From assembly GCF_009754905.2 (NCBI RefSeq), contig NZ_CP066775.1, forward strand, positions 372,001 through 436,000: 64,000 nt of DNA, in the 5' to 3' direction. The notes beneath the pieces are model-generated. The model saw nothing but the letters and a program-made list of their open reading frames with translations, was not told where the DNA came from and searched no databases. The DNA is from Mucilaginibacter ginkgonis (GTDB lineage Bacteria > Bacteroidota > Bacteroidia > Sphingobacteriales > Sphingobacteriaceae). This document shows positions 24,648-40,400 of this stretch, piece after piece (position 1 is the first letter of the stretch; every line of letters begins with the position of its first letter). The position numbers were made by a program, and so were the translations under genes.

Positions 24648-24663
24648 GATCCTCTTTCTATAT

Positions 24664-25995
24664 ATGCTGTTTCACTTTATGTTTCATAACCGCCGGGCAC
24701 TCGCTTGGCGGTTATTGTTTACCCTCACTATATTTATATCGCTGCTTTCAGTGTCAGCAAGCTACGGACATCAGTCGCCCAATACCCTTGTATTCATGGA
24801 CGCTGGACCTAAAAGCGCAGTGCTGGAACTGCAAATGCCAGTGAGTGAACTCGAGCTCGCATTCGGTCATCAGATATCGAAAGATCCGGCAACACTTATT
24901 ACACGTCTCGGCCCGCAACTTAAAGAATATATCAAGGCTCATATAAAGGCATATAGCGATAAGACCAAGCCCTGGAATGTTGATGTTTCAGCACTAAAAA
25001 TGGATAAGAGTCCATACGCCGATAATATCAACTACGACTATTGGGAGCTGGTTGCAAGCGTTGTATTGACTCCTAACAATGGCGAAAGCACCCGTAAGTT
25101 TACATTAAACTACGACGTCATTATGCACCAGGTTGTTAACCATGCAGCACTATTGTATATGCGCAGCGACTGGGAAACAGGAAAAATAAGCGGCACACCA
25201 ACACAAAGCGCGGTGATCAGCTGGAACACCAAAGATAATAAGATATATCCCCTAAAAGTTAATCTGGAAGGCGGGAGCTGGACACGGGGGTTTACCAGTA
25301 TGGTATCGTTAGGCATTCAGCATATTCAGGAAGGAACAGATCATCTGCTATTTCTGTTAACGCTTCTATTACCCGCGCCACTCATTGTGATTGGAAAGCG
25401 CTGGGCGAAGGCAGGCGGTATTCGCTACAGTCTGATAAGGATACTTAAGATCGTTACCGCGTTTACCATCGGGCATTCTATAACACTTATCATCGGTTCC
25501 GCAGGCTTAATTCCTTTTCCTGTACATATTATAGAAGTGCTTATAGCGATAAGTATTTTGGTCTCAGCCGTTCATGCCCTTAAACCCATCTTCCCGGGAA
25601 AGGAGATGTATGTCGCTTTAGGTTTCGGATTGATACACGGTATGGCCTTCGCGGAAACCTTAGCAGGGCTACACCTCGACTGGCAAAGCATGGCGCTAAG
25701 CATATTAGGTTTTAACGTTGGCATCGAACTCATGCAACTTTTCGTTATTGCGGTAACCATACCCTGGTTGATTATATTGAGCAGATCTCCTTTATATAAA
25801 TACATCCGTGTTGGCGGAGCGATGCTAGCATCTATTGCAGCCATTGCCTGGATCATTCAAAGAGTATCATTTAATGACAACTTTATCACCGGTTGGATAA
25901 CAGCGTCAACAGGATATGTAAAATGGTTGGTGTTGATGCTAGCTGTACCTTCTTTCGCAAGTCTAGCTTTTAGACCAAAGACGGTTAAGTCATAA
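24664..25995 (+). CDS. HupE/UreJ-like membrane protein with periplasmic N-domain
   Basis: This 443-residue protein has a signal peptide and an extracytoplasmic domain of about 190 residues. A membrane half begins with FTSMVSLGIQHIQEGTDHLLFLLTLLL (about residues 210-236), the HupE/UreJ_2 signature. TAFTIGHSITLIIG, LGFGLIHGMAFAETLAG and the last helices follow. The conserved His/Asp residues of IQHIQEGTDH, GHS and HGMAFAE are the presumed metal path in this family (nickel or other divalent cation). It is the middle gene of a three-gene operon, 16 bp after the DUF3500 gene and 3 bp before the receptor. Substrate unproven. Confidence 0.82.
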   Translation: MLFHFMFHNRRALAWRLLFTLTIFISLLSVSASYGHQSPNTLVFMDAGPKSAVLELQMPVSELELAFGHQISKDPATLITRLGPQLKEYIKAHIKAYSDKTKPWNVDVSALKMDKSPYADNINYDYWELVASVVLTPNNGESTRKFTLNYDVIMHQVVNHAALLYMRSDWETGKISGTPTQSAVISWNTKDNKIYPLKVNLEGGSWTRGFTSMVSLGIQHIQEGTDHLLFLLTLLLPAPLIVIGKRWAKAGGIRYSLIRILKIVTAFTIGHSITLIIGSAGLIPFPVHIIEVLIAISILVSAVHALKPIFPGKEMYVALGFGLIHGMAFAETLAGLHLDWQSMALSILGFNVGIELMQLFVIAVTIPWLIILSRSPLYKYIRVGGAMLASIAAIAWIIQRVSFNDNFITGWITASTGYVKWLVLMLAVPSFASLAFRPKTVKS

Positions 25996-25998
25996 CGT

Positions 25999-28245
25999 AT
26001 GCGTTACGTGGCGTTATTTCTATTCGTTTTATCTAACCTTAATGGGAACGCGCAGCGGCGCAGTTTTGAAGGTTCGGTGTATGCCGACGTTTCTCATCTT
26101 CCTTTAGAAGACGTAACTGTGCACCTCTTTCCCGGTAACCAGGCAGTATCGACCGACATTAACGGCATATACAAATTCAGGAATGTGTCAAGGTTTATAG
26201 ATAGTGTCAAGATAACGGCCGTAGGTTATAAGACAATTACATTGAAGGGTAGCTCGTTAAGAAACGGCAGCAGCGTTTACCTTACTGAGCAACAGACCAT
26301 GTTGTCTGACATAACAATAACGGGAAACACACCAAATCCCTATAAAGGAATAAGCGATATCGACATAAAGATGCGTGGTGTTTCGAACTCACAGGAAGTG
26401 CTGCGCATCGTACCAGGTTTGTTTATCGGCCAGCATCAGGGAGGTGGTAAAGCTGAACAGATATTCTTACGCGGGTTCGACAACGACCATGGTACAGATA
26501 TTAATTTGAGCGTAGACGGAATGCTCATTAATATGGTTTCGCATGCGCATGGACAGGGTTATGCAGACAGCCACTTTATTATCCCCGAAACAATAGAAAG
26601 TACGACTTATAAGAAAGGGCCATATGATGCTGAAAAAGGTGATCTTGCGGTAACCGGCTCTGTAGACTTCCATACTTTCGATGCGTTAAGCAACAACCTT
26701 ATAAAGGCTGAGGTAGGTCAGTTTAATACTTACCGCATTCTTGGAATGGCAAATTTGTTAGACAGCGCCTCGCGAGCTAAACAGCGTTCTTGGTATGCAG
26801 CTTCAGAGTACCGTTACAGCGATAGTTACTTTGACAACCCCCAGCATTTTAACAGGTTCAACTTCTTCACTAAATACCACGGACACCTGTCAAAGAACAA
26901 TGTATTTAGTATAGCGGCCTCGACCTTTTACAGCAAATGGAATGCTTCAGGTCAGATACCGGAAAGTGCAGTTGCCAAACGCGAGGTTGGTTTTTACGGC
27001 GCTTTAGATCCTAATGAGGGAGGTGTAACCTCAAGAACGAACTTTAATGCACAATTGCTCACCATCTTACCGAATAATGATGTAATTAAGAATCAACTTT
27101 ACTACTCCAATTACAAATTCGACCTGCATACCAACTTTACTTTTTATTTAGTTGATACCGTCAATGGTGATGAGATAAGACAGCGTGAAAGCCGCAACCT
27201 TTTTGGCTATTATGGCAGCTACCTGCACGAAGGTTTGTTAGGAGAAATGAGGCTCACAACAGATGCAGGTGTACAATTAAGATTTGATGCTACAAATAAT
27301 TCAGAGCTATCACATACCGTAAGCCGTTACACAGTTGTAAACCCAATTAAGTTAGGCGATGTGTTGGAGACAGCGAATGGATTGTATCTAAATGAGACGC
27401 TTAAGATAAGTCCGAAACTTACGTTAAATGCAGGTTTAAGGTACGATCACTTGACGTACAGGTATAACAATAAACTCGCCACTGACAGTACCTTTAACGG
27501 CATAGGTATTTACAAGGCAGCCAACGGAACCTTAAGCCCTAAACTAAACACTTATTATCAAGTGAGTTCTAAAACACAGCTTTACTTGTTTCTGGGAAAG
27601 GGCTTTCATTCTAATGATGCGAGAGTAATAGTTGCTCAGACCCATGGACCAACTCTACCATCGGCTTACAGTTTAGATCTTGGAACTGTTTTAAAGCCCG
27701 GCTCAAACTTACTATTAAACGCAGCATTGTGGTACAGCTACCTCGAGAAAGAATATGTTTATGGAGGAGATGGCGGTACTGTAGAGTTTAGCGGAGCAAC
27801 GCGCCGTATGGGCTTTGACCTTTCCGCAAGATACCAACCTTTAAAGCCTTTATTATTTGATGCAGATGTGAATTATGCTCATGGGCGAGCGGTAGATGGT
27901 GGGTACATCCCGCTTGCTCCGGTTTGGAGTAGCACAGGCGGGCTAACCTGTACTTCACAATCAGGTTTAAATGGCAGCCTGCGTTACCGTTATCTTGCTG
28001 ACCGGCCCGCTAATGAGGACTATAGTTTAACAGCAACAGGTTATTTTATAAATGACCTCGTTCTTAACTACACTAAGGGGAAGTATGAGATAGGTATCAC
28101 TATAAATAATTTGTTTAACGTCAGGTGGAAAGAAACACAGTTTGAAACAATTACACGTTTAAAAAGTCAGGCTGCTGTCGATGGTATCGCTTTTACACCA
28201 GGGACTAAGTTTGCAGCGCTCGCACATTTTGCTTTAAAACTGTGA
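25999..28245 (+). CDS. TonB-dependent outer-membrane receptor
   Basis: This 748-residue receptor has a signal peptide ending near NGNAQ and a carboxypeptidase-like beta-sandwich (about 22-100, FEGSVYADVSHLPLEDVTV). The plug has QEVLRIVPGLFIGQHQGGGK and EQIFLRGFDNDHGTDINLSVDGM (about 130-175), and the barrel ends in FAALAHFALKL. No SusD partner is present, so this is a single-component importer for a metal chelate or small molecule rather than a polysaccharide utilisation receptor. The plug contains a His-rich stretch (MVSHAHGQGYADSHF). Together with the HupE-like partner it suggests metal import. Confidence 0.9.
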   Translation: MRYVALFLFVLSNLNGNAQRRSFEGSVYADVSHLPLEDVTVHLFPGNQAVSTDINGIYKFRNVSRFIDSVKITAVGYKTITLKGSSLRNGSSVYLTEQQTMLSDITITGNTPNPYKGISDIDIKMRGVSNSQEVLRIVPGLFIGQHQGGGKAEQIFLRGFDNDHGTDINLSVDGMLINMVSHAHGQGYADSHFIIPETIESTTYKKGPYDAEKGDLAVTGSVDFHTFDALSNNLIKAEVGQFNTYRILGMANLLDSASRAKQRSWYAASEYRYSDSYFDNPQHFNRFNFFTKYHGHLSKNNVFSIAASTFYSKWNASGQIPESAVAKREVGFYGALDPNEGGVTSRTNFNAQLLTILPNNDVIKNQLYYSNYKFDLHTNFTFYLVDTVNGDEIRQRESRNLFGYYGSYLHEGLLGEMRLTTDAGVQLRFDATNNSELSHTVSRYTVVNPIKLGDVLETANGLYLNETLKISPKLTLNAGLRYDHLTYRYNNKLATDSTFNGIGIYKAANGTLSPKLNTYYQVSSKTQLYLFLGKGFHSNDARVIVAQTHGPTLPSAYSLDLGTVLKPGSNLLLNAALWYSYLEKEYVYGGDGGTVEFSGATRRMGFDLSARYQPLKPLLFDADVNYAHGRAVDGGYIPLAPVWSSTGGLTCTSQSGLNGSLRYRYLADRPANEDYSLTATGYFINDLVLNYTKGKYEIGITINNLFNVRWKETQFETITRLKSQAAVDGIAFTPGTKFAALAHFALKL

Positions 28246-28397: not shown

Positions 28398-29018
28398 CTA
28401 TCTGCTTCGATTCAAACCATCTGTGCTCGAATCATCTCCCGGTTTTATGATCAGGGCCCTTTCGAAGTACGGGCGCGCTTCTTGTTTTCTTCCGCTCATC
28501 AACAAGCTCCAGCCAAGCATATGATTACCATCATAGTCAAAAGGATATAATGTAGCCACGATCCGGAAACATTTTATTGCCGCGTCAAACTGTTTACGGT
28601 TATAATAGATCACACCTAACCAATAATTAGCCTGCGTATTTTGCGGATCGATCTTTAAGATAGCATTATATTGCTCAGCTATCTTGTTAGTGTTTTGCAA
28701 AAATGCAAGCGGCTTTATGTAACCAAATTTTGCCTCGATAGCGCCCGGGCGCAGCTCAACCGCTTTTTGATAATAAGTTTGCGAGGCGTTATAGTTCTTG
28801 TTTAAATAATGCAGCCAACCCAGCCTGATGTTCACTTCATAGCTGTTATCTGCGTAATAGGGTATGATGTCTGCTATTGCAGCGGTGTAATTTTTATTGG
28901 TTTCATTGCCGTAGCTATTATGAAAAGCTTTTTGCAGCACGGCATTTGTCTGCGCTTGTGAGATCACAGTTTGCGCCAGTACTAAAATAAGTAAAAAGGT
29001 TTTTCTTAAAATTTCCAT
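28398..29018 (-). CDS. Secreted TPR protein
   Basis: This 206-residue protein has a signal peptide (cleavage near VISQAQ) and four to five TPR motifs, for example NVRLGWLHYLNKNYNASQTYYQ-like and ANYWLGVIYYNRKQFDAAIKCF. It is periplasmic. It is the last gene of the operon that starts with the receiver protein near 35.4 kb, and it overlaps the preceding gene by 13 bp. A scaffold role for the beta-barrel protein encoded just before it is plausible but unproven. Confidence 0.75.
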   Translation of the reverse strand: MEILRKTFLLILVLAQTVISQAQTNAVLQKAFHNSYGNETNKNYTAAIADIIPYYADNSYEVNIRLGWLHYLNKNYNASQTYYQKAVELRPGAIEAKFGYIKPLAFLQNTNKIAEQYNAILKIDPQNTQANYWLGVIYYNRKQFDAAIKCFRIVATLYPFDYDGNHMLGWSLLMSGRKQEARPYFERALIIKPGDDSSTDGLNRSR

Positions 29019-30208
29019 GCAACGCCTGCCGTAATTGAATGCTGGCCGTAGTTGTCCAGCCGGTAAATATCATATTTGGTTTCGTAAGTATAATTTATTT
29101 GCAGCATTGTGTGCAAATTTAGCCGATAAAAAAACGTAGCGCCGGTTTTAAATTTGGTTGGGTCTATCGCGTTGTAAATATATAAACCATCTGCGTCTAC
29201 ATAGTTTTCGAGGTTGCCTAAGGTTATGTTAGCTTCTAACCAGGTTTTGCGGCCTGTCTTAAAGCCAATTGATTGACCGAAAATAAATTCGGTTGCTGAA
29301 TTATAACTTTTTAAGGAAGCCTTGCTAATAGTATACAGGTTTAAATTTCCGTTTGAATACCAGGTCAGTTGAGCATTATATTGCAATAATCGCGAACTAT
29401 AAATGCTGCCCAAGTTAATATCCGCTTGCAGGTCTGTATATCGGCCACCAGTATAAATGAAGCCTAAAACACCAATATTGCTGTTATAAGTTGTACCGGC
29501 GTAATTAGTATTTAAATAATGATACGCACTAAGCAGTGTAAATTTTTGGTTTAAAGAATAGCGGGCTTTTAAAAAATATTCTATCTGGCTATCATCATTC
29601 ACACGAGTGTTAACCGGTCCCAAAATTCCTGGCGGATTTACGTTGACGGCCGGCCCGTTAACTTTTTGATTAAAGTAAATTACCGATTGGTCTAACAAGA
29701 GATGCCAGCCAACCCGATTGCTTAATCCTGCACGTGTATACAATCCGGTTTGGCGGCCTGCACTTTCCGGTGCTTTGATTCCGGCTTCCAAAGCGGCACA
29801 TGTAAAGGCAAACCTGGCGATGCCCTCTTTCTTTAGTGTCGCTGAATCCAGATACGCGGCATTTGCAAAAGACCCGGGCTCATTGTTGAGATACAGGTTA
29901 CAAAAATAAGCATAGTATCTTGCAACAGGTGCGTAACTATCCGCGGTGATAATGGCATTGTATTGTTGCAGTGCAGCTTTGTAGTCCTCAGTAACAAAGC
30001 GGGCATAAGCCAGCCGATACCGTAGTAACTGGAAATCCAATCCCGTTGCCAAAGCAGAATCAGCGTAAGCGATTAATTTTTGCCACTCGCCCGCTTTGTA
30101 AAGTTCGTAAGATATAGTATCGGCGTGGATATAAGGATCCTGCTGCGCTTTAAGCGCAAATGCCTGCAGCAGCAACGCCAACACGATCACATATTTCCGG
30201 TAAGCCAT
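29006..30208 (-). CDS. YaiO-like TPR plus outer-membrane beta-barrel protein
   Basis: This 400-residue protein has a signal peptide (ALLLQAFALKAQ) and TPR-like helices at about residues 30-140. A region from about 155 to 400 alternates short polar turns with amphipathic strands and ends in aromatic Phe (SITAGVAWKF), as outer-membrane barrels do. The layout matches the YaiO group, whose function is not well known. It overlaps its upstream neighbour by 22 bp. In this operon it is the only candidate for passage through the outer membrane. Confidence 0.68.
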   Translation of the reverse strand: MAYRKYVIVLALLLQAFALKAQQDPYIHADTISYELYKAGEWQKLIAYADSALATGLDFQLLRYRLAYARFVTEDYKAALQQYNAIITADSYAPVARYYAYFCNLYLNNEPGSFANAAYLDSATLKKEGIARFAFTCAALEAGIKAPESAGRQTGLYTRAGLSNRVGWHLLLDQSVIYFNQKVNGPAVNVNPPGILGPVNTRVNDDSQIEYFLKARYSLNQKFTLLSAYHYLNTNYAGTTYNSNIGVLGFIYTGGRYTDLQADINLGSIYSSRLLQYNAQLTWYSNGNLNLYTISKASLKSYNSATEFIFGQSIGFKTGRKTWLEANITLGNLENYVDADGLYIYNAIDPTKFKTGATFFYRLNLHTMLQINYTYETKYDIYRLDNYGQHSITAGVAWKF

Positions 30209-32328
30209 TCTACGTGGATCTTATTGTTCGAATTTTTACTCGTAAAACTGCTAATGCGTTGACCATTGATGAGAATACTGCCATCTGCAATGGTACTGCC
30301 ATTTTTTATCCTTTCACTATGGATGACCAATTCGCCTGCGCGCGATTCTGCTTGACTGTGATGAGTTATTTCGTTAAAAATAAAAAACGGTGCCACAATA
30401 TCCTGAAGCCACATGGCCGGGGTATTATCCATATCAACCAGCGGAAAATGATCAGTCATTGATGTTTGCTCGCGAAACCAAACGTTAAAGGCCGTCAGGT
30501 AAAACTGGTACAACAGCGAACCTTTATCGCCATTAAAACTAGTGAAATAAAAACGGTTGCCGTTATTAATAAAATATGCTGCAGCCCCCGTTTCACGACT
30601 GTACAGATAATTTTGATATAATCCATTAGTGACAGACTCTATTGTTTCCGTCCTTTCTGCAGACTTCATCTTCGCGACGTAGCCGGGTTGAAAATCAAAA
30701 GCTTTTTTAATTGACGCGTTGGCGAGGAAATTATTAACGTGGCAGCCCTCAATTGGTGTAGCGGTTGATGCGATTTGCAGCACGCCACCCTCATCCACCA
30801 TTTCATAAACGGCGAGCGGGTAGGCCAGCGTCTTTGAACCGATGTAAGGTGTAGCTTGTACCTGGAAATGCAAGTGGGGTTCAGGCGAGCGGCCCGAATT
30901 ACCACACAAGCCTAACAGATCACCTGTACTAACCCATTGCCCAACCTTGACGGCGATTGAATCTTTTTTAAGATGCGATACCTTGGAGTACAAGCCGTCG
31001 ATGTGTTTGATGACAACCGTGTTACCCCAGTTTTCAGTCAGATTTACCTCGCCGATGATATTATCTTCGATATGGTTTACTACGGCTTCGATTACGCCAT
31101 CGCCGCAGGCCAAAACCGGTTTGTTGTAACAATAAAAATCTCCCGGTTCAATGCCCGGATATTTGTAAGTATTGCCATCACTGTCTGTGATCACAAAATC
31201 AAGGGCATGGCCCCAATCGCCCAAATGTGTAATAGAGCCATTATATCCTTGCGACACCGTCCACCGGCCCATGAACGGTAAGACCAGAGGAAAATAATCG
31301 AGCCTGGCAAGACGCTTCTTTTGATTTATAAACTGGTAAAGGTTTCGTTCAGGCGAATAATGCTGAACAACCACCGGTTGCGGTTTACCCGACGATTGGC
31401 GCGATTTTACGAAATATAGTAAGGCGAAATTGACGATGCAAAACGGCAGGGAAAATACCGGGAGGGAGTGTAACCCTAACAACGTACTTAATGCATTTAC
31501 CAATAAAAATAGAGCAGGGATACTGATAACGGCGCACAGGTATGATCTCCAAGAGGGGATTAAAAAAAAACTACCGATGGCGATTGTCGCCATTATGAAA
31601 TTTGCGCCAAGATGATAGTAACTAACGCCGTCCGGATAGATATGAAAGGCTGAATTAAACGCAATGGCCGTTAAAAAACCGGTCACAGAAAGTGTAAATC
31701 CGATCCTGGAATGTATAAGCAGTCCTAAAGCGACGCCGATACCCGTTATTACATTGCATTGGAAAAGCACCGCGCTTAACGACCTGAAATAAAGGCATAG
31801 GCTACCCGGCATGGCGTCGCAGAGGTACTGATGTAATAATCCAATTTTGTTTTGACCGGTGTAGATCTCTTGCAGAAGCGCACTGTCCTTTTGTAATAAG
31901 CCGGTATTGAAGATGCTGTTTGCAGCCGCTAAAACGATCCAAAAGGTTACTATGAAGGGGAGAGACAAAATTGGCAGATTAACCTTAGCCAACCGTTGTA
32001 CTAATATGCCCGATAGCAACACCACCATCAATGATGCTACCAGGTACCAAAGAATAAAATGAGTATTTATATGATAAAAAGAGCCAAATGCCAACCCTAA
32101 CAGCAAACTGTTGAAACTATAGACGCCCGTGCGCAGATTAGCTTGATCAAAACCCAAGACTTGCGCCATTATGAGTGAAAATAGCACGCCCGCAAATCCG
32201 CACAGGCCGGCAACAGGGTTTAGTATAGACACGCAAAGCAAAATAAAGCCGAACACAGTGCTCTGCGAAAAAAACAGAATCGAATAGGTGTTAAATACCG
32301 ACTTTAAATATGTCAGTAAATTTTTCAA
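30187..32328 (-). CDS. Urea-transporter-like membrane domain fused to an M23 peptidase
   Basis: This is a 713-residue two-part protein. Residues 1-310 contain about ten membrane helices with urea transporter (UT family) features such as NLRTGVYSFNSLLLGLAFG and the internal-repeat echo FLTAIAFNSAFH. Residues about 340-480 are a peptidase M23 (lysostaphin-like) domain with QGYNGSITHLGDWGHALDF, then GNTVVIKH, LLGLCGNSGRSP and HLHFQVQ. The Asp of HALDF and the HLH pair are expected zinc ligands. The last 230 residues are unassigned. The start overlaps the end of the decarboxylase gene by 4 bp (ATGA). It places a channel for small amides and a periplasmic glycyl or peptidoglycan peptidase in one chain. 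Confidence 0.82.
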   Translation of the reverse strand: MKNLLTYLKSVFNTYSILFFSQSTVFGFILLCVSILNPVAGLCGFAGVLFSLIMAQVLGFDQANLRTGVYSFNSLLLGLAFGSFYHINTHFILWYLVASLMVVLLSGILVQRLAKVNLPILSLPFIVTFWIVLAAANSIFNTGLLQKDSALLQEIYTGQNKIGLLHQYLCDAMPGSLCLYFRSLSAVLFQCNVITGIGVALGLLIHSRIGFTLSVTGFLTAIAFNSAFHIYPDGVSYYHLGANFIMATIAIGSFFLIPSWRSYLCAVISIPALFLLVNALSTLLGLHSLPVFSLPFCIVNFALLYFVKSRQSSGKPQPVVVQHYSPERNLYQFINQKKRLARLDYFPLVLPFMGRWTVSQGYNGSITHLGDWGHALDFVITDSDGNTYKYPGIEPGDFYCYNKPVLACGDGVIEAVVNHIEDNIIGEVNLTENWGNTVVIKHIDGLYSKVSHLKKDSIAVKVGQWVSTGDLLGLCGNSGRSPEPHLHFQVQATPYIGSKTLAYPLAVYEMVDEGGVLQIASTATPIEGCHVNNFLANASIKKAFDFQPGYVAKMKSAERTETIESVTNGLYQNYLYSRETGAAAYFINNGNRFYFTSFNGDKGSLLYQFYLTAFNVWFREQTSMTDHFPLVDMDNTPAMWLQDIVAPFFIFNEITHHSQAESRAGELVIHSERIKNGSTIADGSILINGQRISSFTSKNSNNKIHVEWLTGNM

Positions 32329-33680
32329 ATGCCGGCGTTCAAATGAGCAGGTAACTGCTCAGGGGTTTCTACATATTCGAGTGTTTCATTAGCGCGAATC
32401 AAATGTGTTTGCTCATGTTCATCTATAAGTACCACAGCCGGGCGGGTGGTGATAAATTGCATCCACTGGGTCATGTTATATGCTCCAACTTTGTGAACCA
32501 CCAAATGATCACCCGGATTCATGACCGGCAGATTTATTTGCTCCCGAATCATGTCGATATTCATGCATAAAGGGCCGAAGATGGCCATATTCTCGGTGTG
32601 TGGTTCAAAATCTCCCGCGGGCGAAATTTGGTGATCATACCATAGGGATGTAAATAAAGTGTTGACCCCAAAATCGACCACAAGCGAGCGGCGGCCGTCC
32701 CCCAAGCGTTTGTTGGCTAAAACCGTCCCAGCCAGGTGGCCGGCGTCATCTATCAACATGCGGCCGGATTCCAGGATAAGCATCGGCAATTCGTATTTTT
32801 CGAATCCTGCATTTAGTAAGGCATTACTAATGGCTTCGGCATAATCGTCCGCATTGGGCACTGTATCTACAGCCGGCAAGTAAGCGCCTTTTAACGTATT
32901 GGTCGACGCGAACCCACCACCTAAATCAAGGTATTCGATCATATGCTTTAGCTCATTTTTGCATCGCAAGGCCAAGGCTGAAAGCTTTTGCGCAGCAGTA
33001 CGATATGCACTTACAGCAGTTACATAAGTCCCTATGTGGCAATGCAGCCCCACCAGTTGCAACGGGCTTGATTTAATTACTTTGTCAATCGCGGTCCACG
33101 CTTCGCCGTTTTCATAGTTAAAGCCAAACCTGTCCCACAACGGGTAGGTGCCCGTATCCATATTTACCCTAACAGCAACACGCGGTTTGTTTTTTGTTTG
33201 GTAGCCCAGCGTTATCAATTGCTGCAACTCGTCAAAATGGTCAATATGGATAAGTGAATCGTTTTCGATAGCCAGGTGCAAATCTTCTTTACTTTTCGCG
33301 GGGCCATTAAAAATGATCTTATTGCCCGGCATACCATTACCCAGCGCCTTGCGATATTCAAAGCCCGATACTACTTCTGCCCAGCTACCTTCGGCATGAA
33401 ATATTTTACAAACAGCGTTAATGTAGTTGGTCTTGTAACTCCAGGCAAACTGCACTTTTGGATAGCGGGTACTAAACGCACGGTAAGCAGAGCGGTAGTT
33501 ACGCCTAACCTGTTTCTCCGACAACACAAAAACGGGGGAGCCGTAATCTTCAATAAGCGCCTTTACAGGCACGCCGGCAATTTCCTTAACAGGCTGTACG
33601 CCGGTGTAGCTGCCAAATTTATTGATCGTGTTGGCGTTGAGTTTCTTTAGAACGGGGCGTTCATAGATAAGCTTTGGCAT
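32325..33680 (-). CDS. Fold-III PLP-dependent decarboxylase (DAP/ornithine decarboxylase-like)
   Basis: This 451-residue enzyme has the pattern of group IV decarboxylases. The PLP lysine is in FAWSYKTNYI, followed by GLHCHIGTYV, the phosphate-binding YLDLGGGFAS and ESGRMLIDDAG (the EPGR position). A C-terminal beta domain carries GPLCMNIDMI and VGAYNMTQW. It would decarboxylate, or less likely racemise, a basic or meso amino acid. It is longer and more divergent than housekeeping LysA, and it lies between an ATP-grasp ligase and the transporter-peptidase. A biosynthetic role specific to this operon is therefore more likely than lysine synthesis. It overlaps the ATP-grasp gene by 20 bp. Confidence 0.84.
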   Translation of the reverse strand: MPKLIYERPVLKKLNANTINKFGSYTGVQPVKEIAGVPVKALIEDYGSPVFVLSEKQVRRNYRSAYRAFSTRYPKVQFAWSYKTNYINAVCKIFHAEGSWAEVVSGFEYRKALGNGMPGNKIIFNGPAKSKEDLHLAIENDSLIHIDHFDELQQLITLGYQTKNKPRVAVRVNMDTGTYPLWDRFGFNYENGEAWTAIDKVIKSSPLQLVGLHCHIGTYVTAVSAYRTAAQKLSALALRCKNELKHMIEYLDLGGGFASTNTLKGAYLPAVDTVPNADDYAEAISNALLNAGFEKYELPMLILESGRMLIDDAGHLAGTVLANKRLGDGRRSLVVDFGVNTLFTSLWYDHQISPAGDFEPHTENMAIFGPLCMNIDMIREQINLPVMNPGDHLVVHKVGAYNMTQWMQFITTRPAVVLIDEHEQTHLIRANETLEYVETPEQLPAHLNAGI

Positions 33681-34743
33681 TTTTATTTGTTTTAAGCTCG
33701 CCGAAGGCGCTCATTTGCTGGAAATCTGAAATATCCACCACATTGTCCCATGAATAGCGGACAAACATTTTTCCTGTCTGATACGCTGTCATCTTTTGCG
33801 GTTGATGGCCCAATGCCATCTGCACTAACACCTCGGGCTGGTTCTGGCCCGCGGCTGCTGTAAGGTATATCCATGCCGGGAAACGCGGATTAATCTCGAG
33901 AATATATAACTGTCCGTCCGCACCGCGCACGATCTCCAGTTCGTAGCCGCCGCGCCATTTTGTTGCGCCGGCAAATTTGTCTGCGAGAGCAATCAACTGA
34001 TCGTCTTCGATAGTTACACCTGCCCAGGCCTTACCTTTATCTGTTATATAAAGTTTCCGCATTGGTACGATGCTTAGATTATAACCTTCACCATCTCCTA
34101 TGGCGGCGATGTTGATCTCTGTGCCGCTTATAAATTGCTGGGCTATTACCGGCAATCCCCATTTTGCGCTCAACTCATAAAAAGCTTTTCGGGCGGAGTC
34201 TGCGTTGTGAGCAATTGTTGCTTCATAATACTTACCTTTTATAACAAGCGGATAGCTCAATTTTTCCGCCGCAGTGTAGAGTTCCGCTTCGTTATTTATC
34301 AGCCTGTCGTGCGGAACGTTTAAACCTAATTTGTTACCTAACCGGTTTAGGTTCACTTTATCACGCATGTTCAATTGCTCATGAGATGGCAAAAACATAG
34401 CAATTCCAAACTTTCGAAGCCTTTTTTCAATACTGATGAAATTGTGAAGCTCTGCATCAAAATTAGGGATGACTACGTTAATCGTTTCTTCGGAGTGTAT
34501 TTGCGCTATACGTGAAGCAAGCGCTTCGGCACCTGCTGAAGGGTAGGGAATCTGGTAAGTTTTTTCTATCAAACCCGGAACGTATATACCTGCCTCCAAT
34601 GCTTCGTAAGCCAAACCAATTATACGCAGCCCTACGCCAAACGCTTCTTTCAGCGCACGTGCAACTGCAACACCGGGGCCGGGGTTGTCATTAGCGTTAA
34701 GGCCGGTTACTGCAACACAAATTTCAGCGTAAATGTCTCCCAT
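33661..34743 (-). CDS. ATP-grasp ligase
   Basis: This 360-residue protein has the carbamoyl-phosphate-synthase/PylC-like ATP-grasp fold. The N-terminal Rossmann-like part contains VAVTGLNANDNPGPGVAVAR. The nucleotide lid is around YPLVIKGKYYEATI, FISGTEINIAAI and ELEIVRGADGQLYILEINPR, where the final Glu and Asn bind magnesium. Such enzymes join a carboxylate to an amine through an acyl phosphate. With a PqqD-like protein one base upstream and a decarboxylase overlapping downstream, the product is probably an amide or small peptide. Substrates cannot be read from the sequence. Confidence 0.84.
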   Translation of the reverse strand: MGDIYAEICVAVTGLNANDNPGPGVAVARALKEAFGVGLRIIGLAYEALEAGIYVPGLIEKTYQIPYPSAGAEALASRIAQIHSEETINVVIPNFDAELHNFISIEKRLRKFGIAMFLPSHEQLNMRDKVNLNRLGNKLGLNVPHDRLINNEAELYTAAEKLSYPLVIKGKYYEATIAHNADSARKAFYELSAKWGLPVIAQQFISGTEINIAAIGDGEGYNLSIVPMRKLYITDKGKAWAGVTIEDDQLIALADKFAGATKWRGGYELEIVRGADGQLYILEINPRFPAWIYLTAAAGQNQPEVLVQMALGHQPQKMTAYQTGKMFVRYSWDNVVDISDFQQMSAFGELKTNKNAKAYL

Positions 34744-34744
34744 G

Positions 34745-34987
34745 TTACACTTCTAAAAGATTTGCCTGTTTTAATTGCTGTATCAAATCGTCCCAGTCGC
34801 GGTCAAGACGGGCTGTATCCACGTCATAATGTTCCAGGATGAAGTTTTTAATTTGTGCCTCGGTTTCGCCGTTTTTCATCGCGGCCAAAATAAAAGATGC
34901 CATGCCATTACACGAAAATGAATCGCCTGTAGCAGGATTGAAAATAAGACCACTTTCGCTAGTGGCAACATTTGGTTTAATTTTCAT
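34745..34987 (-). CDS. PqqD-like small protein
   Basis: About 80 residues: KIKPNVATSESGLIFNPATG, then a winged-helix part through LEHYDVDTARLDRDWDDLIQ to QLKQANLLEV. This is the PqqD fold, known elsewhere as a peptide-binding chaperone (RiPP recognition element). ATG 34987 is preferred to the in-frame TTG at 34993. It ends one base before the ATP-grasp gene. It may present a precursor peptide or a carrier-bound substrate, but no precursor gene is visible between the neighbours. Confidence 0.8.
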   Translation of the reverse strand: MKIKPNVATSESGLIFNPATGDSFSCNGMASFILAAMKNGETEAQIKNFILEHYDVDTARLDRDWDDLIQQLKQANLLEV

Positions 34988-35006
34988 TGGCAATATGAGT
35001 ATATAA

Positions 35007-35384
35007 TTAAGAGGCCATCAAGTAATCTATCCTTGTTGCTAAAACATTCATATCGAGTGGTTTAACAAAGAGGGCATCATATCTGTAAGCATCCAACTTA
35101 ACTTTCGATGTTTTAAAAGCAGTTACTATAATTATTGGTATTGTGTGCAGTAGCTCATCATCTTTTAAATCCTGACATATTAGCCCGCAATCGTTGCCAA
35201 TTAAAAGGTAATCTAAAATTATCAGATCGGGTGAGATAAACTTTGCCTTTTGATAGACAGAGTTCGAATCATAAATTATATGAATATCAAAGTCCCCGTG
35301 TTCTGAAATTTGATTTATAGTGGAGAGCATTCTCCAATCCTGGTCTAATACTAGAATCTTTTTTTTAGTTAATGAGCCACTCAT
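35007..35384 (-). CDS. Stand-alone response-regulator receiver protein
   Basis: This 125-residue CheY-like receiver has an acidic pocket at LVLDQD (Asp 14, Asp 16) and phosphoacceptor Asp 58 in LIILDYLL. It also has the conserved Thr (VTAF) and Lys (FVKPLD). There is no output domain. It is 19-20 bp upstream of the PqqD-like gene and probably the first gene of that operon. It could regulate the system by protein contact, or carry phosphate from the LytS-type kinase encoded nearby. Confidence 0.82.
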   Translation of the reverse strand: MSGSLTKKKILVLDQDWRMLSTINQISEHGDFDIHIIYDSNSVYQKAKFISPDLIILDYLLIGNDCGLICQDLKDDELLHTIPIIIVTAFKTSKVKLDAYRYDALFVKPLDMNVLATRIDYLMAS

Positions 35385-35486
35385 AATAATAGGGTTTTAT
35401 TACCTTATAAAATTGCAGCCTTGAGTAAAAAATAGCGATACTTTGTCTTTAAATAACGACAATTAATCGATGAATTAATAGTTATG

Positions 35487-36182
35487 TCATTTAGACCAAC
35501 GTTTAATAAAATCAGCGTAGCTGTTACCAACCGGTAATTCAATAGATGGCAACTTTACCTTTCGGTTCAGAATAGATGTAACTTGTCCTTTTGCAATTAT
35601 ATAACTTCTATGAATCCGCTCAAATTTATTAGAAGGCAACTTTTCCAATACTGCTTTTAATGACATTAAAGTTAATAACGGTTTTTCAACGCCAAGTAAA
35701 TAGATCTTGATATAATCCTGCATGCTCTCAATATACTCAATATCACGTATCGGCACTTTAATCATGCGATACTCCGAGTGTATATAGATAGCTTCTTCGG
35801 CCTCGTTGCCGGCTCTCTTTTTATAGCTAAAAAAATCGATGGCCTTATTTACAGCTTCATTGAAACGCTTTATGCTGATCGGTTTCAATAGGTAATCCAG
35901 CGCTTGAAGTTCAAAGCCTTCGAAGGCGAAATTTTTATGTGCCGTGGTGAAGATAACCATCGGCTTGTCTTTGAGAGCGCGTACCAGGTCAACACCGGTA
36001 ATATCGGGCATATCTATGTCGATGAACAACAGGTCTATCCGGGTATTGTGGAGATATTCCGCGCCGGAAACAGCGTCCTCGAAAGTAGCAAGCAGTTGCA
36101 ATTTGCTAAATTCAGCGATATATTTTTTAATGATTTCCAGCGCAAGCGGCTCATCATCGATAGCTACACATTTTAGTTGCAT
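35487..36182 (-). CDS. LytTR-family response regulator
   Basis: A protein of about 231 residues. The receiver begins CVAIDDEPLAL and has phosphoacceptor Asp in LLFIDIDMPDI and Lys in YLLKPIS. The LytTR DNA-binding domain is at about 130-231, with IEYIESMQDYIKIY and FERIHRSYIIA. ATG 36182 is preferred over TTG 36227, because the protein then starts directly at the receiver. It follows the LytS-like kinase on the same strand and is its evident partner. Targets are unknown, and the operon downstream (35.4-28.4 kb) is a candidate. Confidence 0.88.
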   Translation of the reverse strand: MQLKCVAIDDEPLALEIIKKYIAEFSKLQLLATFEDAVSGAEYLHNTRIDLLFIDIDMPDITGVDLVRALKDKPMVIFTTAHKNFAFEGFELQALDYLLKPISIKRFNEAVNKAIDFFSYKKRAGNEAEEAIYIHSEYRMIKVPIRDIEYIESMQDYIKIYLLGVEKPLLTLMSLKAVLEKLPSNKFERIHRSYIIAKGQVTSILNRKVKLPSIELPVGNSYADFIKRWSK

Positions 36183-36220
36183 AAGGCTCTTCCCAACACT
36201 CCCAAAAGAGGAGACTTTTT

Positions 36221-37408
36221 TTAACAAGTTATATCCAGTTTAACGACAAAGCGGTTGTCTACTGTTTTAATGTCTAATGTATGTTTGCCATTGTAAATAT
36301 ATTGTAAACGCTGTCGCGTATTTGTAATACCAATTCCCTTGCGGTTCGCAGCGCCTTTTTCAAAAATGGTATTAGCGCAAAAGAATTTTATGTCGCAATC
36401 ATCAACCTCCAGCGTAATGTCAATCACTGTCTCTTCATGCTTACTAATGCCATATTTGAATACATTTTCGATAAATGTCATTAGCACCAATGGCGCTATC
36501 CGCTGATTTACTACCTCGCCGGTTACACTAAAACTTAGCTTTGTTTTTTTGCCAAGCCGTAACTTTTGTAAGTCAATGTAATCTTTAATACAATCTATCT
36601 CGCTTTGTAGCAGTACCAAATCTTCTGCAACTTCGTCGGTAACATACCGCATAATATTAGATAACTTCATGATACTTTCAGACGTATTTGGGTTACCTGT
36701 TACAGAGAGGGCATAAATGTTGTTGAGGGTATTGAACAAAAAGTGCGGGTTGATCTGCGCTTTAAGAAACGATAACTCGGCACGTGCTTTTTCTGCCTGG
36801 GCCATTCCCACCATACTCTCAGTAAACTGCCATTTTTCCACTGTAGTGATGGCAATACTAAGCCCCACCACAATAATAAAAATAAAGAGCGCCACCAAAT
36901 CGATATTTCCCGACTGATGTATAATGAAGATCTTGTTAGATGATTTAAACTGTGGATCCTGCATGCGCATGTCTTGGTGTGGTAGCGGACCGAACATTAG
37001 CCCTTTACCAGTTGATGCGGTATCCGTACCCAGCGCCACCAATGTTGAATCGTGCATTACCGGCAACTGTGTTTGTGTTGTGCGAAAATGCGCGTTTTTA
37101 ATCGAATTGTTTTCCAGCAGGTTGTCAAATGGCTGCAGAAAATAAACCAGGCCCATCAGCAGTAATATAATTACGCCATATACAACATACCGCTTCCTGA
37201 ATACAAATCTAGGCACCAAATACCAAGCATTAATGTAAAACATGAAGATGTACGTGAGGCAGAACAGCCAATAAAAGGGGGAGGCCAAAATAAATAATGT
37301 TGCATGCTTATTCTCCTGCGTTTTGTTCATAAATAAAAGCGGAAAGGCCAGGAAAATGAGCCAGCCGGCAGCATGGATTATTGTAGTAGCAGCATTTGAA
37401 CGGCGCAT
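36221..37408 (-). CDS. LytS/YehU-type sensor histidine kinase
   Basis: A 395-residue membrane kinase with four hydrophobic helices in the first 110 residues and one near residue 175. Next come the His_kinase (PF06580-type) box LSFLKAQINPHFLFNTLNNIYAL and a C-terminal ATPase domain with PLVLMTFIENVFKYG and GIGITNTRQRL. It pairs with the LytTR regulator immediately downstream. The sensed signal is unknown. Confidence 0.88.
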   Translation of the reverse strand: MRRSNAATTIIHAAGWLIFLAFPLLFMNKTQENKHATLFILASPFYWLFCLTYIFMFYINAWYLVPRFVFRKRYVVYGVIILLLMGLVYFLQPFDNLLENNSIKNAHFRTTQTQLPVMHDSTLVALGTDTASTGKGLMFGPLPHQDMRMQDPQFKSSNKIFIIHQSGNIDLVALFIFIIVVGLSIAITTVEKWQFTESMVGMAQAEKARAELSFLKAQINPHFLFNTLNNIYALSVTGNPNTSESIMKLSNIMRYVTDEVAEDLVLLQSEIDCIKDYIDLQKLRLGKKTKLSFSVTGEVVNQRIAPLVLMTFIENVFKYGISKHEETVIDITLEVDDCDIKFFCANTIFEKGAANRKGIGITNTRQRLQYIYNGKHTLDIKTVDNRFVVKLDITC

Positions 37409-37449: not shown

Positions 37450-40400
37450 TTATCTTAAAATTGTAACGTAGCCAGATACCGCTTTACGGCCACTTCTCCT
37501 GGGATCAATGATGTAGTAATATACACCGGTAGGCAGGTTAGCGCCAGCCATAGTGCCGTCCCAGGGTACAGGGTAACCGACAGAGGTGAAAACCTTATTG
37601 CCATAACGGTTAAAGACGCTGATCTGGCTGTTGGGATAGCTGCTTAAATATTCAATGTTCCATACGTCATTTACCCCGTCGCCGTTTGGGGTAAAAGTGT
37701 TGGGCACAACAGGAGCTTTCAAAACTTTTATAAAAGTAGTTGCTGTTATGTTGCAGCCAGCTTTGGTAGTTACAGTTAACGTGTATTGCGTATCGTCGGT
37801 AGGCGAGGCTACAGGGTTTAATATAGCGTCATTATCTAGGCCAGCTGATGGTGACCATCGATAAACCAGGCCCGTTGTGTCGCCGGCGATGCTTGCGTCG
37901 AGGGTAATGCTGCCACCATCCAGTATGGTAACTTTATCGGTGATAGTAGCGGTTGGCACCGGGTTAACGGTGATCTGTTGCACAAAGCTCTCGCTGCAGC
38001 CCGCTGTAGATGTGAAGGTGTAAGTGATGTTAGTGGTGCCAATACCTGCAGCTAGCGGGTCGAAAATGCCATCGGAAGTCACGCCCTTGCCGAAGTAACT
38101 TGTAGTTCCGCCTAATCCCGATGTTTCTTTACCTGCCAATTGAACAGTGCCGGCATTAATGCATACTGGCGTGATAGCATCAAATTTTATAATTGGGATA
38201 GGTAGCAGCGTGACATACCCGTCGGTAATATTTACGCACGTGCCACCTGAATACGCCTTTAAAACTACGTGATACTTTTTTGGGGCGGCTGGATAGGTGA
38301 TCACCGGGTAATTGTGCGGATAGGTAGTGCCTTTCACCGGGTCGTTATATTCTTCCACGGCCGCAGGTTGGTTATCAAAATCGAAATACCATTGTATTTT
38401 AGTGACGTTACCGAAATCTGCCACATAAGAGTTATCGGTGAATAAGGCAGGTGCGTCACTGCAGACTTGTGTGCTCGCAGCAGCAAAATTTGCAACCGGA
38501 TTCTCGCCGTTAACACTCAATTGCTGAGTTTTTGTAGTAACACACCCATTAGCTGTAGTTACCGTAAGCGTTACATTATACAATTGTGCTTTGGTGTATT
38601 TGTGCCGGGGGTTTTGCTGTGTTGAGGTATTTGGATTCCCGGAGGTAGCGTTTGTATCTCCAAAATTCCAAAGATATTTAAAACCTGCCTGCGAACCATC
38701 GCTGATGGTCGAAGCATCGGTAAATTGAGCGTAAGCATCATTTAAACAAACATCAGGAATCGTGAAGTCTACAGTTGCTATTGCATTTACAGTCACGGGT
38801 TTGATAACAAATGTACTTTGACAGCCTGCAGCTGTAAATACCATCAGGCTGCTATTAAACGTCCCCGATGTGGTGTAAACATGCGAATGTGGTGCTGCTG
38901 ATGACAGGGTGTCTGCTTTACCATCACCATAATTCCATATCCATCTGACTAGAGTACCGTCGGTGGTCGTAGAAGCATCTGTAAAAGTTACAGCTTGTGT
39001 TGCACAGTCTGGTGTTGTAAATGTGTAGGCAGCAACCGGGTCAGCATTGATATGAACAGCTTGTGTTTCGGAACTCATACTGCATCCTGCCGAATTCACT
39101 ACCGTTAGCTTAACTAAATAATTACCCGCAACAGAATATACATGCGAAGGGTTTTGCAGTACGGACGTTTGTCCGTCGCCAAAATCCCACATCCAGGCGG
39201 TGATAATTGATGCTGACGTAGAATTATCTGTAAATAAAACAGCGTCTTTTAAACAGGTTGCAGCCGCGTAGGTGAAAGAAGCAGTTGGTGGCGCAGTCAC
39301 CACCAGCGAAGATGTCGAAGAGGTAACTGAACAATTAGCAGAATATCCCGCGTCGGAAGCTACAACCCTATACAGGTAGGTGCCCGCAGATATGCTTGTA
39401 GTGAAACTATAATCAGCCGTTGTTGCACCGGTTATATTGGTATACGTAGTGCCTCCGTCTGTGCTTAATTGCCATTGGTACACGGGTGAAATGAAAGTTG
39501 GTGTTGCCGCGGCGGTAACCGTGAGTGTCTTTGCATTGTTTGTGCAACCAGCCTCGTTAGCCGTTGTATTGGATGTAAATGTTGTAACGACGGAAGGTAA
39601 AGAGGTAACGCTAACAGATTTTGTAGTAGCGGCGCTTGAGCAGCCTGCCGCCAGTATAACGGTTAGGGTGGCATTATAGTTTCCTCCGGATATGTAGGTA
39701 TGTGTATGTGTGCCACCTGTGGTCAATGTTTCTGTAGTGCCGTCACTGTAGTCCCAAATCCACTGTGCAATTGCACCGTCTACGCTGGTTGAATTGTCAG
39801 TAAAAATTACAGGCTGACCGGCACAGTTTGGAGATGATATAGTAAAAGCCGCCACAGGCTTGGTATTAATAGTAATTGCGTGACTGGCGGTGCTTGTGCA
39901 ACCGGTACTGCTTGTTACGGTGAGTGTGACGGTATAAGTGCCTGGCGTGGCGTAAACATGAGAAGGAGTTGAAGAGGTTGCTGACCCATCTCCAAAATCC
40001 CACACCGATGACGTAATGGTTGAACCGTTGGCCTTGGGTTTATCTGTAAACATCACAACATCGTTCAGGCAATTTGAAGCAGTATAACCAAAATCGGCTG
40101 ACGGGCCCGCGGTAACATTGAGTGTTAACGCGTTTGATGCTACATAGCAGCTGGAAGATGAGATGTTATCAGAACTTGCAGACACCAGCCGGTATAAATA
40201 AGTGCCTGCAGGAGATGGAATACTTATTGGGAATGATGTAGCAGTTGATGCGCTGCCGATATCGACCCATCCGTTAGCGGTGGTATATATTTGAGGTTTC
40301 TGCACAAATCCGCTCGCTAAAGTGCTCTGCGAATTAATGGTGATGGCCTGGGTTGAACCCGCGCATGTAGTGGCACTTGTCGCTGATGACGAACTGCCCA

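What the first reader, a model, noticed from the sequence alone, without database searches (positions are those of the whole stretch)
28398..35384. Candidate new system: PqqD-like, ATP-grasp, PLP decarboxylase, UT-M23 fusion, YaiO-like barrel
Seven genes lie head to tail on one strand; the six from the PqqD-like gene onward overlap or are 1 bp apart. They combine a peptide-binding fold, an amide ligase, an amino-acid decarboxylase, an inner-membrane small-amide channel tied to a peptidase, and an outer-membrane barrel with TPR helpers. This is the set expected for making, exporting and perhaps processing a small amide or peptide. No precursor peptide gene is visible. I know of no described pathway with this set.
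Basis: partly seen in the sequence, partly recalled or inferred. Interest (0 to 1): 0.78.

Follow-up and report, generated by a model that had tools for sequence, protein, structure and literature searches.

The report
Leader-tagged amide-making and export cassette
Many bacteria of the phylum Bacteroidota carry the same block of genes, in which a small peptide-gripping protein is predicted to hold a conserved tail on a decarboxylase enzyme so that the block would make, and likely export, an unknown small amide; our searches found no name for it.

Summary
PqqD-like, ATP-grasp, LysA-fold decarboxylase (DEC), UT-M23 fusion, outer-membrane barrel and TPR genes form a cassette conserved across Bacteroidota. 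In 395 phylum genomes the ATP-grasp occurs in 34, exactly the 34 with a UT-M23; the 11 other UT genomes lack it. Of 140 loci with the ATP-grasp, 139 have PqqD and 136 DEC; the misses are at contig ends.
New finding: DEC carries a conserved N-terminal tail, K-x-x-[Y/F]-E-x-P-x-I...K-F-G (P9 and K21 in 136 of 136), outside the enzyme fold and modelled with low confidence. It matches the YxxPxL leader motif of lasso peptides, and PqqD's closest solved relatives are lasso leader-binding proteins. The residue pair that touches in one such crystal structure changes together here (134 of 134 concordant, but only two independent switches). In 20 carrier genomes no other such tail matched at E<0.07.
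Best reading (inferred): PqqD docks DEC; ligase and decarboxylase make a small amide that leaves through a UT channel with a partly changed filter. YaiO membership is not supported; the receiver gene is not core. Product and direction are unknown.

The parts
34745..34993 (-). PqqD-like protein (82 aa from TTG; most homologues start at the ATG six bases on), lasso-type leader-binding (RRE) fold
   Evidence: PF05402; best NCBIfam lasso_PqqD_Strm in the window (39.9 bits, below its 70-bit cut-off) and matched by 20 of 20 members scanned; closest PDB chains TbiB1, TfuB1, 9x90
34796..34798 (-). codon of PqqD Asp66, equivalent of LppB Asp70 that bonds the leader tyrosine
   Evidence: gapless alignment to 9x8z; contact described in PMC13381572, passages seen; covaries with DEC residue 6
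33661..34743 (-). ATP-grasp ligase (360 aa)
   Evidence: PF15632, PF02655; nearest solved CPS large subunit and 2pn1; K169, E209, E268, E270, E283, N285, R287 in 138-140 of 140 loci, the rest gaps
32325..33680 (-). LysA-fold PLP decarboxylase, DEC (451 aa)
   Evidence: PF02784, PF00278; nearest solved N-citrylornithine decarboxylase 7kh2; below lysA cut-off, 234.5 against 297.9 bits; PLP Lys83 in 136 of 137, one gap
33585..33680 (-). leader-like N-terminal tail of DEC, residues 1-32 (MPKLIYERPVLKKLNANTINKFG...)
   Evidence: P9, K21 and Y/F6 in 136 of 136 with letters; codons vary; residues 6-26 pLDDT<50; one copy in 19 of 20 carrier genomes, two in the other
30187..32328 (-). UT-M23 fusion (713 aa): UT channel, linker, M23 metallopeptidase, beta-rich C-terminal domain
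   Evidence: PF03253 + PF01551; AlphaFold2 mean pLDDT 88; Foldseek 3k3g TMt 0.84 and LytM domains
31411..32304 (-). UT channel domain (residues 9-306)
   Evidence: PF03253; position 186 is E or Q in 0 of 123 fusions and in 6 of 6 stand-alone UTs compared; the matching first-half Gln (position 17, Ile in the window) is kept in 92 of 123
31294..31413 (-). K/R-rich linker after the last UT helix (residues 306-345); places M23 on the cytosolic side if the positive-inside rule holds
30814..31296 (-). M23 domain (residues 345-505) with complete zinc/catalytic set H368, D377, H452, H485, H487 (roles recalled)
   Evidence: all five invariant in 123 of 123; M23 relatives in PDB
29006..30208 (-). secreted, TPR-headed predicted outer-membrane beta-barrel (400 aa), ends in Phe
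   Evidence: hydrophobic N-terminus in 96 of 103 relatives by a simple count; no YaiO model match; barrel fold not modelled
28398..29018 (-). secreted TPR protein (206 aa), predicted periplasmic
   Evidence: TPR families; hydrophobic N-terminus in 113 of 121 relatives
35007..37408 (-). receiver (35007-35384), LytTR regulator (35487-36227) and histidine kinase (36221-37408): lineage-specific regulators, not core
   Evidence: families in 7, 20 and 18 of 62 loci

Best explanation
This is a conserved Bacteroidota gene cassette in which a lasso-type PqqD protein is predicted to grip a leader-like tail on the decarboxylase, so that an ATP-grasp ligase and that decarboxylase would together make a small amide that likely leaves the cell through the fused UT channel and an outer-membrane barrel. 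Shown: gene order and strict co-occurrence; intact active-site residues in ligase, decarboxylase and M23; the tail, its conservation, and the lack of a second one in 20 carrier genomes; the lasso-type identity of PqqD; a UT pore in which one of the polar positions of the stand-alone UTs is always replaced and two others mostly changed. Inferred: PqqD binds the tail as lasso leader-binding proteins bind YxxPxL, tethering DEC (and probably the ligase). The ligase forms an amide on an amino acid; DEC, whose residue beside the catalytic cysteine is Met as in N-citrylornithine decarboxylase, decarboxylates that conjugate rather than a free basic amino acid. The M23 domain, placed by topology at the cytosolic mouth of the channel, hydrolyses a peptide or amide bond to release or trim the product, which passes the UT pore and then the barrel with its TPR partner.
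For: Co-occurrence 34 of 34 and 0 of 11 in 395 phylum genomes. Of 140 loci with the ATP-grasp, 139 have PqqD (138 of them within 100 bp), 136 DEC, 130 UT; misses at contig ends except two, and both of those genomes hold UT-M23 elsewhere. Tail: Y/F6, P9, K21 in 136 of 136, G23 in 135, all four Pro codons used, no overlap with the ATP-grasp gene in 129 of 136, pLDDT<50 for residues 6-26 while residues 31-40 average 96. Lasso-type PqqD with most LppB leader-contact positions kept (contacts from PMC13381572). DEC6 x PqqD66: Y-D 110, Y-N 1, F-Y 21, F-F 1, F-H 1, none discordant; first of 36,982 PqqD x DEC pairs by normalised mutual information. Tail profile in 20 carrier genomes: only the cassette copies, next match E 0.07; the cassette PqqD is the only PqqD match in 15 of 20. 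DEC Cys372-Met373 against FigC C354-M355 (PMC7857480). Pore changes.
Against: The covariation rests on two independent switches (sign test p 0.5), and PqqD66 also tracks ATP-grasp residue 288 with slightly higher normalised mutual information (0.747 against 0.697), a clade marker; by APC-corrected mutual information the pair ranks 4th, by raw 5811th. No complex was modelled. The window's own tail lacks the common G17 and its PqqD has Leu at position 70 where most have Phe. The first-half filter Gln is kept in 92 of 123 fusions, so urea passage is not excluded. No call identifies the substrate, the product or the direction of transport. The M23 side rests on homology and charge bias only. The barrel fold is predicted from context. 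FigC H357, thought to touch citrate, is Ile375 here, so the substrate is not simply N-citrylornithine.
Confidence: 0.55

Rival explanations
1. An ordinary RiPP pathway with an unlinked precursor: PqqD binds a separate small peptide encoded elsewhere, the ATP-grasp modifies it (graspetide-like), and M23 removes the leader before export.
For: PqqD is of the lasso leader-binding type; ATP-grasp ligases modify peptides in graspetides (recalled); M23 keeps its catalytic residues.
Against: No second tail-like match at E<0.07 in 20 carrier genomes; no small gene of 50 aa or more is shared by most loci (the commonest, a cold-shock gene, is in 7 of 62). A precursor with a quite different leader would be missed, and so would peptides under 50 aa.
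Confidence: 0.15
2. An uptake and salvage system: barrel and UT channel import a small amide, urea or a cell-wall fragment, and M23 and the enzymes process it.
For: UT family proteins are passive channels (recalled), so direction is not set by the fold; the first-half filter Gln is kept in 92 of 123 fusions; M23 enzymes usually act on peptidoglycan (recalled); direction was not tested.
Against: The ATP-grasp (ATP-consuming, bond-forming) and PqqD fit biosynthesis better than degradation; no TonB-type receptor among the cassette's core families; the second-half filter residue is replaced in 123 of 123; no urease family in the fusion loci (f22 only in six stand-alone-UT loci).
Confidence: 0.15
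3. A cell-envelope modification system: the enzymes make an amide-linked group that is attached to peptidoglycan or a surface polymer, and M23, acting in the periplasm, opens the wall for it.
For: M23, secreted TPR and barrel are envelope-type proteins; nearest solved M23 domains are peptidoglycan hydrolases.
Against: UT termini lie on one side (recalled) and both flanks are K/R-rich, which predicts a cytosolic M23; no further gene family is shared by most loci (largest: the alternative barrel, 17 of 62, and a type IX sorted protein, 13 of 62). Most neighbour families were not annotated.
Confidence: 0.1

Closest known systems
Lasso peptide B1 proteins (TbiB1, TfuB1, PbaB1) and their YxxPxL leaders; LppB
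   Same: PqqD-fold protein nearest to this subfamily with most leader-contact positions kept; a partner sequence with Y/F-x-x-P-x-I/L/V.
   Different: The partner sequence sits on an enzyme, not on a small precursor peptide; no lasso protease or cyclase belongs to the cassette.
N-citrylornithine decarboxylase (FslC/FigC, 7kh2) and its relatives SbnH, BtrK, MccE
   Same: Highest-scoring solved relative of DEC (302 bits, against 235 for diaminopimelate decarboxylase); Cys-Met at the catalytic loop (PMC7857480 passages). That paper's clade 2 holds enzymes for conjugated amino acids, BtrK among them, beside DAP and D-ornithine decarboxylases.
   Different: Below the FslC cut-off (211 against 500 bits); FigC H357 is Ile375; extra leader-like tail; no further family shared by most loci that could be a siderophore synthetase.
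Butirosin BtrI/BtrJ/BtrK side-chain pathway
   Same: Ligase plus LysA-fold decarboxylase working around a small protein (BtrK activity from PMC7857480; BtrJ as ATP-grasp recalled).
   Different: The small protein here is a leader-binding PqqD, not an acyl carrier protein; BtrK scores lower than FigC and DAP decarboxylase (146 bits).
UT-family urea channels (dvUT, UT-B)
   Same: Whole channel fold (TMt 0.84 to 3k3g); first-half Gln kept in 92 of 123 fusions.
   Different: Fused to M23 and a beta-rich domain; position 186 never Glu/Gln, Thr mostly replaced at 122 and 293; no urease beside it.
PgaA/BcsC-type TPR-plus-barrel exporters
   Same: TPR region followed by a predicted barrel, with a secreted TPR partner (comparison recalled).
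   Different: No match to those families beyond shared TPR repeats; no polysaccharide synthase in the cassette.

Membership tests
Lasso peptide cluster | PqqD-type leader-binding protein (B1) | tested here: met
   lasso_PqqD_Strm matched by 20 of 20 members scanned, though the window's 39.9 bits is below the 70-bit cut-off; TbiB1 1.9e-12
Lasso peptide cluster | B2 transglutaminase-fold protease | tested here: not met
   PF13471 over cut-off in 1 of 20 carrier genomes, there beside a second PqqD on another contig. Below cut-off in two more, in a 477-aa protein that matches ordinary Transglut_core (PF01841), on the opposite strand near the cassette in 5 of 62 loci
Lasso peptide cluster | asparagine-synthetase-like cyclase in the cluster | tested here: not met
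   no such domain among the window's nine proteins; no further gene family is shared by most loci; neighbours were not all annotated
Lasso peptide cluster / RiPP | small precursor peptide gene with the leader | tested here: not met
   tail profile finds only the cassette copies in 20 genomes, next match E 0.07; other leaders not excluded
PQQ-type pathway | radical SAM partner of PqqD | tested here: not met
   none among the window's nine proteins; no further gene family shared by most loci
Diaminopimelate decarboxylase (lysA) | score over the curated cut-off and Glu-Ser after the catalytic Cys | tested here: not met
   234.5 against 297.9 bits; Met373 in 133 of 133 and Asn374 in 131 of 133 with letters, against Glu-Ser in 1twi
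N-citrylornithine decarboxylase (FslC) | score over cut-off and His at FigC 357 | tested here: not met
   211 against 500 bits; Ile375 in 133 of 133 with letters
Urea channel for urease | urease linkage | tested here: not met
   urease family f22 in none of the fusion loci and in six of seven stand-alone-UT loci (named by Pfam in L113)
Urea channel for urease | polar filter residues of urea channels (recalled) | tested here: inconclusive
   position 186 E/Q in 0 of 123, 122 Thr in 4, 293 Thr in 13, but position 17 Gln in 92 of 123
M23 metallopeptidase | complete zinc and catalytic residues | tested here: met
   H368, D377, H452, H485, H487 in 123 of 123
M23 metallopeptidase | extracytoplasmic, acts on peptidoglycan | tested here: inconclusive
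   topology favours the cytosol; activity not testable
YaiO outer-membrane family | match to a YaiO model | tested here: not met
   no match at E<=0.1 or E<=1 in eight relatives

The most novel reading that the evidence does not exclude
The decarboxylase carries its own precursor peptide: PqqD presents the DEC tail to the ATP-grasp, which ligates an amino acid to the invariant Lys21; the decarboxylase converts the tethered residue, and the M23 domain at the channel mouth cuts the finished amide free for export. An enzyme would then be at once leader, carrier and catalyst, a third way of scaffold-bound biosynthesis besides acyl carrier proteins and RiPP precursor peptides.
Probability: 0.13. 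Interest if true: 0.92.

Novelty: categorically new. Interest (0 to 1): 0.78.

Why it matters
If the tail is bound by PqqD, leader recognition, known as a device for ribosomal peptides, has been turned into a docking device for an enzyme; genome-mining tools that use PqqD-type domains to call RiPP clusters could misfile these loci. The cassette's ATP-grasp is in 61 of 295 sampled genomes of the window's class and 34 of 395 of the phylum, so an unknown exported (or imported) metabolite may be common among Bacteroidota. A UT channel with a partly changed filter, fused to a peptidase, also opens the question of what UT-fold pores can pass besides urea. Each step can be tested with one peptide, one purified protein or one deletion.

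Tried and rejected
PqqD as a LysW-like carrier modified at its C-terminus: rejected, the C-terminal residues are not conserved. A riboswitch naming the metabolite: none at Rfam gathering scores in the window or 7 other loci. UT as a urea supplier for urease: not supported. Defence system: no PADLOC match for five proteins. The two frames of UT and M23 in L115 as evidence for a separate M23 gene: not used, the break lies at a T run and looks like a frameshift. The ATP-grasp search in the 5.8-billion set was saturated (7993 of the 8000 scored candidates passed) and its listed names were generic; the UT-M23 search gave 3322 clusters among 8000 scored, and the 120 listed bear names such as urea transporter, peptidase M23, peptidoglycan DD-metalloendopeptidase, M23ase, MepM/NlpD or hypothetical, or none. 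The genome-contig scan found only 3 loci, so the genome search was used instead. Covariation as statistical proof: not claimed, two switches only. PMC8503589 was looked at (passages) and not used.

Limits of sampling: loci were chosen by the ATP-grasp profile, so presence of the ATP-grasp is by construction there; the unbiased co-occurrence test is. The genome samples overlap. One UT-M23 carrier (G129) was not fetched at length. Of 148 loci examined (window included), 8 had no ATP-grasp: L078 ends inside the cassette, 7 are the stand-alone-UT loci fetched as controls. Residue counts leave out L001 (same locus as L076). One of 135 pairs had a gap at DEC6 (L225), leaving 134. In L203 and L225 DEC, and in L115 and L230 UT-M23, are in two frames. 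Stand-alone UTs are 6 of the 7 fetched; L120 was left out.
Full report
WHAT WAS CLAIMED AND WHAT IS THERE. Seven minus-strand ORFs lie at 28398-35384 as described, with 1 bp between PqqD and ATP-grasp and overlaps of 20, 4, 22 and 13 bp downstream. Families: PqqD, ATP-grasp, LysA-fold PLP decarboxylase (DEC), UT + M23, a secreted TPR-headed protein, a secreted TPR protein, and a lone receiver domain. The window lies in a 3.70-Mb single-contig genome; the named records nearest in UT-M23 are two Mucilaginibacter and a Sphingobacteriaceae bacterium, 55% identical. No YaiO model matches the barrel.

THE CASSETTE IS CONSERVED. PF03253 was sought in 201 family genomes (29 with UT) and 395 phylum genomes (45 with UT). 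Stretches around most fusions and seven stand-alone UTs were fetched and mapped: the UT-M23 loci have ATP-grasp and DEC upstream, except L078, whose contig ends after DEC; the seven stand-alone-UT loci have none of PqqD, ATP-grasp or DEC, and six of them share a family that is urease alpha in L113. An independent search of 395 phylum genomes with the ATP-grasp profile found 34, with nothing between the cut-off 1e-50 and 2.5e-145. These are exactly the 34 with UT-M23 (33 in one frame; in G204 UT and M23 lie in two adjoining frames); the 11 other UT genomes lack the ATP-grasp.

LARGER SAMPLE. Further searches gave ATP-grasp carriers in 13 of 244 (class of G459), 24 of 196 (family of G308), 1 of 98 (class of G204) and 61 of 295 genomes (the window's class). 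Of 148 loci mapped, window included, 140 have the ATP-grasp. PqqD is upstream in 139 (the exception, L193, ends there), within 100 bp in 138; in L088 another gene lies between. DEC is downstream in 136 (four contig ends), UT in 130 of those 136. Of the six without UT, four are at contig ends; L253 and L259 are real, and both genomes hold UT-M23 elsewhere. After UT, 90 of 140 loci show barrel then TPR and 14 show TPR then another barrel-like family (F8); the rest have other orders or end early. The families of the window's kinase, LytTR and receiver genes recur in 18, 20 and 7 of 62 loci.

THE LEADER-LIKE TAIL. The NCBIfam matches of the window's DEC that span the enzyme begin at residue 33. 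The 32 residues before it are conserved in spots: K3 129, Y/F6 136, E7 133, P9 136, I/L/V11 136, G17 129, K21 136, G23 135 of the 136 with letters. All four Pro codons (31, 25, 29, 51) and both Lys codons occur, and in 129 of 136 loci the tail does not overlap the ATP-grasp gene, so protein-level selection is the likely cause. AlphaFold2 gives pLDDT<50 to residues 6-26 and an average of 96 to residues 31-40, where the fold starts. This is how a short binding motif looks.

PqqD IS OF THE LASSO LEADER-BINDING TYPE. A profile of 20 members finds, in order, TbiB1, TfuB1, 9x90 (PbaB1), PqqD and 9x8z (LppB) in the PDB (names of the last and third). 20 of 20 members match lasso_PqqD_Strm, the window below its curated cut-off. 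In the passages I saw of PMC13381572, these proteins bind a [Y/W]xxPx[L/V/I/F/A] motif; in LppB, Asn33 fixes the proline kink, Asp70 bonds the leader Tyr and Phe74 sits between the pockets. The gapless alignment sets these at window positions 29, 66 and 70: Asn in 139 of 139, Asp in 113 of 139, aromatic in 133 of 139. Of the other contact positions, that of V63 is mostly Asp/Glu here, those of L32 and V35 hold Thr/Ser in a part of the loci, and the rest stay hydrophobic. The YxxPxL motif of lasso leaders was also seen in passages of PMC10368454.

COVARIATION, AND ITS LIMIT. In the first 53 pairs DEC Tyr6 went with PqqD Asp66 in 48 and DEC Phe6 with Tyr/His66 in 5. The larger set, which includes these, has 134 pairs: Y-D 110, Y-N 1, F-Y 21, F-F 1, F-H 1, none discordant. 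The pair ranks first of 36,982 PqqD x DEC pairs by normalised mutual information, 4th after APC and 5811th by raw value; PqqD66 also tracks ATP-grasp residue 288 (0.747 against 0.697), so clade history plays a part. On a quick tree of ATP-grasp (without residue 288) and DEC core, DEC6 and PqqD66 change twice each, residue 288 once; two independent pairs, both concordant, p 0.5. Within the clade of 26 the states are FY 21, FF 1, FH 1, YD 2, YN 1, while residue 288 stays L/I. So: right residues, right direction, two events; suggestive, not proof.

DEDICATED PAIR. The tail profile in 20 carrier genomes finds one copy in 19 and two in G320 (two cassette copies), each at the cassette; the next match has E 0.07. 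The cassette PqqD is the only PqqD-family match in 15 of 20. The lasso protease family is over cut-off in 1 of 20, in G308 beside a second PqqD on another contig; two sub-threshold matches fall in an ordinary transglutaminase-core protein on the other strand near the cassette, found in 5 of 62 loci.

CHEMISTRY. DEC's best solved relative is N-citrylornithine decarboxylase (302 bits; DAP decarboxylase 235; BtrK 146). Passages of PMC7857480 state that in FigC Met355, beside the catalytic Cys, replaces the acidic residue that holds the substrate's side-chain amine, and that FigC falls in a clade with BtrK (carrier-bound glutamate) and MccE (a microcin C intermediate), as well as DAP decarboxylases. 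DEC has Cys372 in 132 of 133 and Met373 in 133 of 133 with letters, but Ile375 where FigC has His357. A conjugated amino acid is thus the likely substrate, not citrylornithine itself. ATP-grasp residues are intact; its nearest solved relatives do not name a substrate.

MEMBRANE PART. The AlphaFold2 model of UT-M23 (mean pLDDT 88) holds the UT fold and a LytM domain. K/R gather at the N-terminus and in the linker after the last helix; with the even number of membrane spans known for UT (recalled), M23 should face the cytosol, odd for M23. Five zinc and catalytic residues (roles recalled) are invariant in 123 of 123. Position 186 is E/Q in 6 of 6 stand-alone UTs compared and in 0 of 123 fusions; 122 and 293 are Thr in 6 of 6, and in fusions Ser in 112 and 83, Thr in 4 and 13; against this, the first-half Gln (position 17, 6 of 6 stand-alone) is kept in 92 of 123 fusions, though not in the window. 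That these are filter residues is recalled from the UT structure literature.

MECHANISM. I commit to: PqqD docks DEC by its tail; ATP-grasp and DEC make and decarboxylate an amide conjugate; M23 at the inner mouth of the channel releases or trims it; it leaves by UT and barrel. Docking is the best supported step (I would put it near 0.85), cassette unity is near certain, amide product and export near 0.6 each, M23 on the cytosolic side near 0.7.

NOVELTY. Five searches of a 5.39-million-paper open library found no paper on this set (none listed; one listed each, on lanthipeptide engineering and on the lipocone superfamily, seen as listings only); subscription journals are mostly missing. Names that sources give to the listed UT-M23 relatives are generic. 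I rate it categorically new because no known kind of system that I tested pairs a leader-binding protein with an enzyme's own tail; the parts are known families, and the pairing itself is still a prediction.

Noticed in passing
window 23178-28245, + strand: A DUF3500 protein, a HupE/UreJ-like membrane protein and a TonB-dependent receptor lie head to tail next to the cassette on the other strand; their conservation together was not checked.
   Followed up: no
window 37450-41172, - strand: A 1240-aa protein with five PKD_4 stretches and a CHU_C type IX secretion signal lies upstream of the kinase gene.
   Followed up: no
window 302-11134, + strand: Two family-2 glycosyltransferases and, further on, an SLBB/Poly_export protein, probably part of a surface polysaccharide cluster.
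   Followed up: no
G308 contig C6:406855-407479: A second PqqD next to a Transglut_core3 (lasso B2-type) frame: probably a true lasso cluster in a genome that also carries the cassette.
   Followed up: no
L115 (G204) 8911-11165: UT and M23 parts lie in two adjoining frames, broken at a T run; barrel and TPR follow several kb downstream.
   Followed up: partly
G320 contig C1, about 1-5 kb and 3.73-3.74 Mb: Equal-scoring cassette copies near both ends of one contig, with UT broken at one end; possibly an unclosed circle whose ends overlap.
   Followed up: no
13 loci, for example L096:5471-6310: A secreted protein of about 280 aa with a type IX secretion sorting domain (Por_Secre_tail in L096) lies near the cassette in 13 of 62 loci.
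   Followed up: partly
L095, L096, L098, L101, L108 (for example L096:3879-5312, - strand): A transglutaminase-core protein (PF01841) on the opposite strand near the cassette in 5 of 62 loci.
   Followed up: partly
window 30187-32328, residues about 525-713: The C-terminal beta-rich domain of UT-M23 has no Pfam match and was not searched on its own.
   Followed up: no
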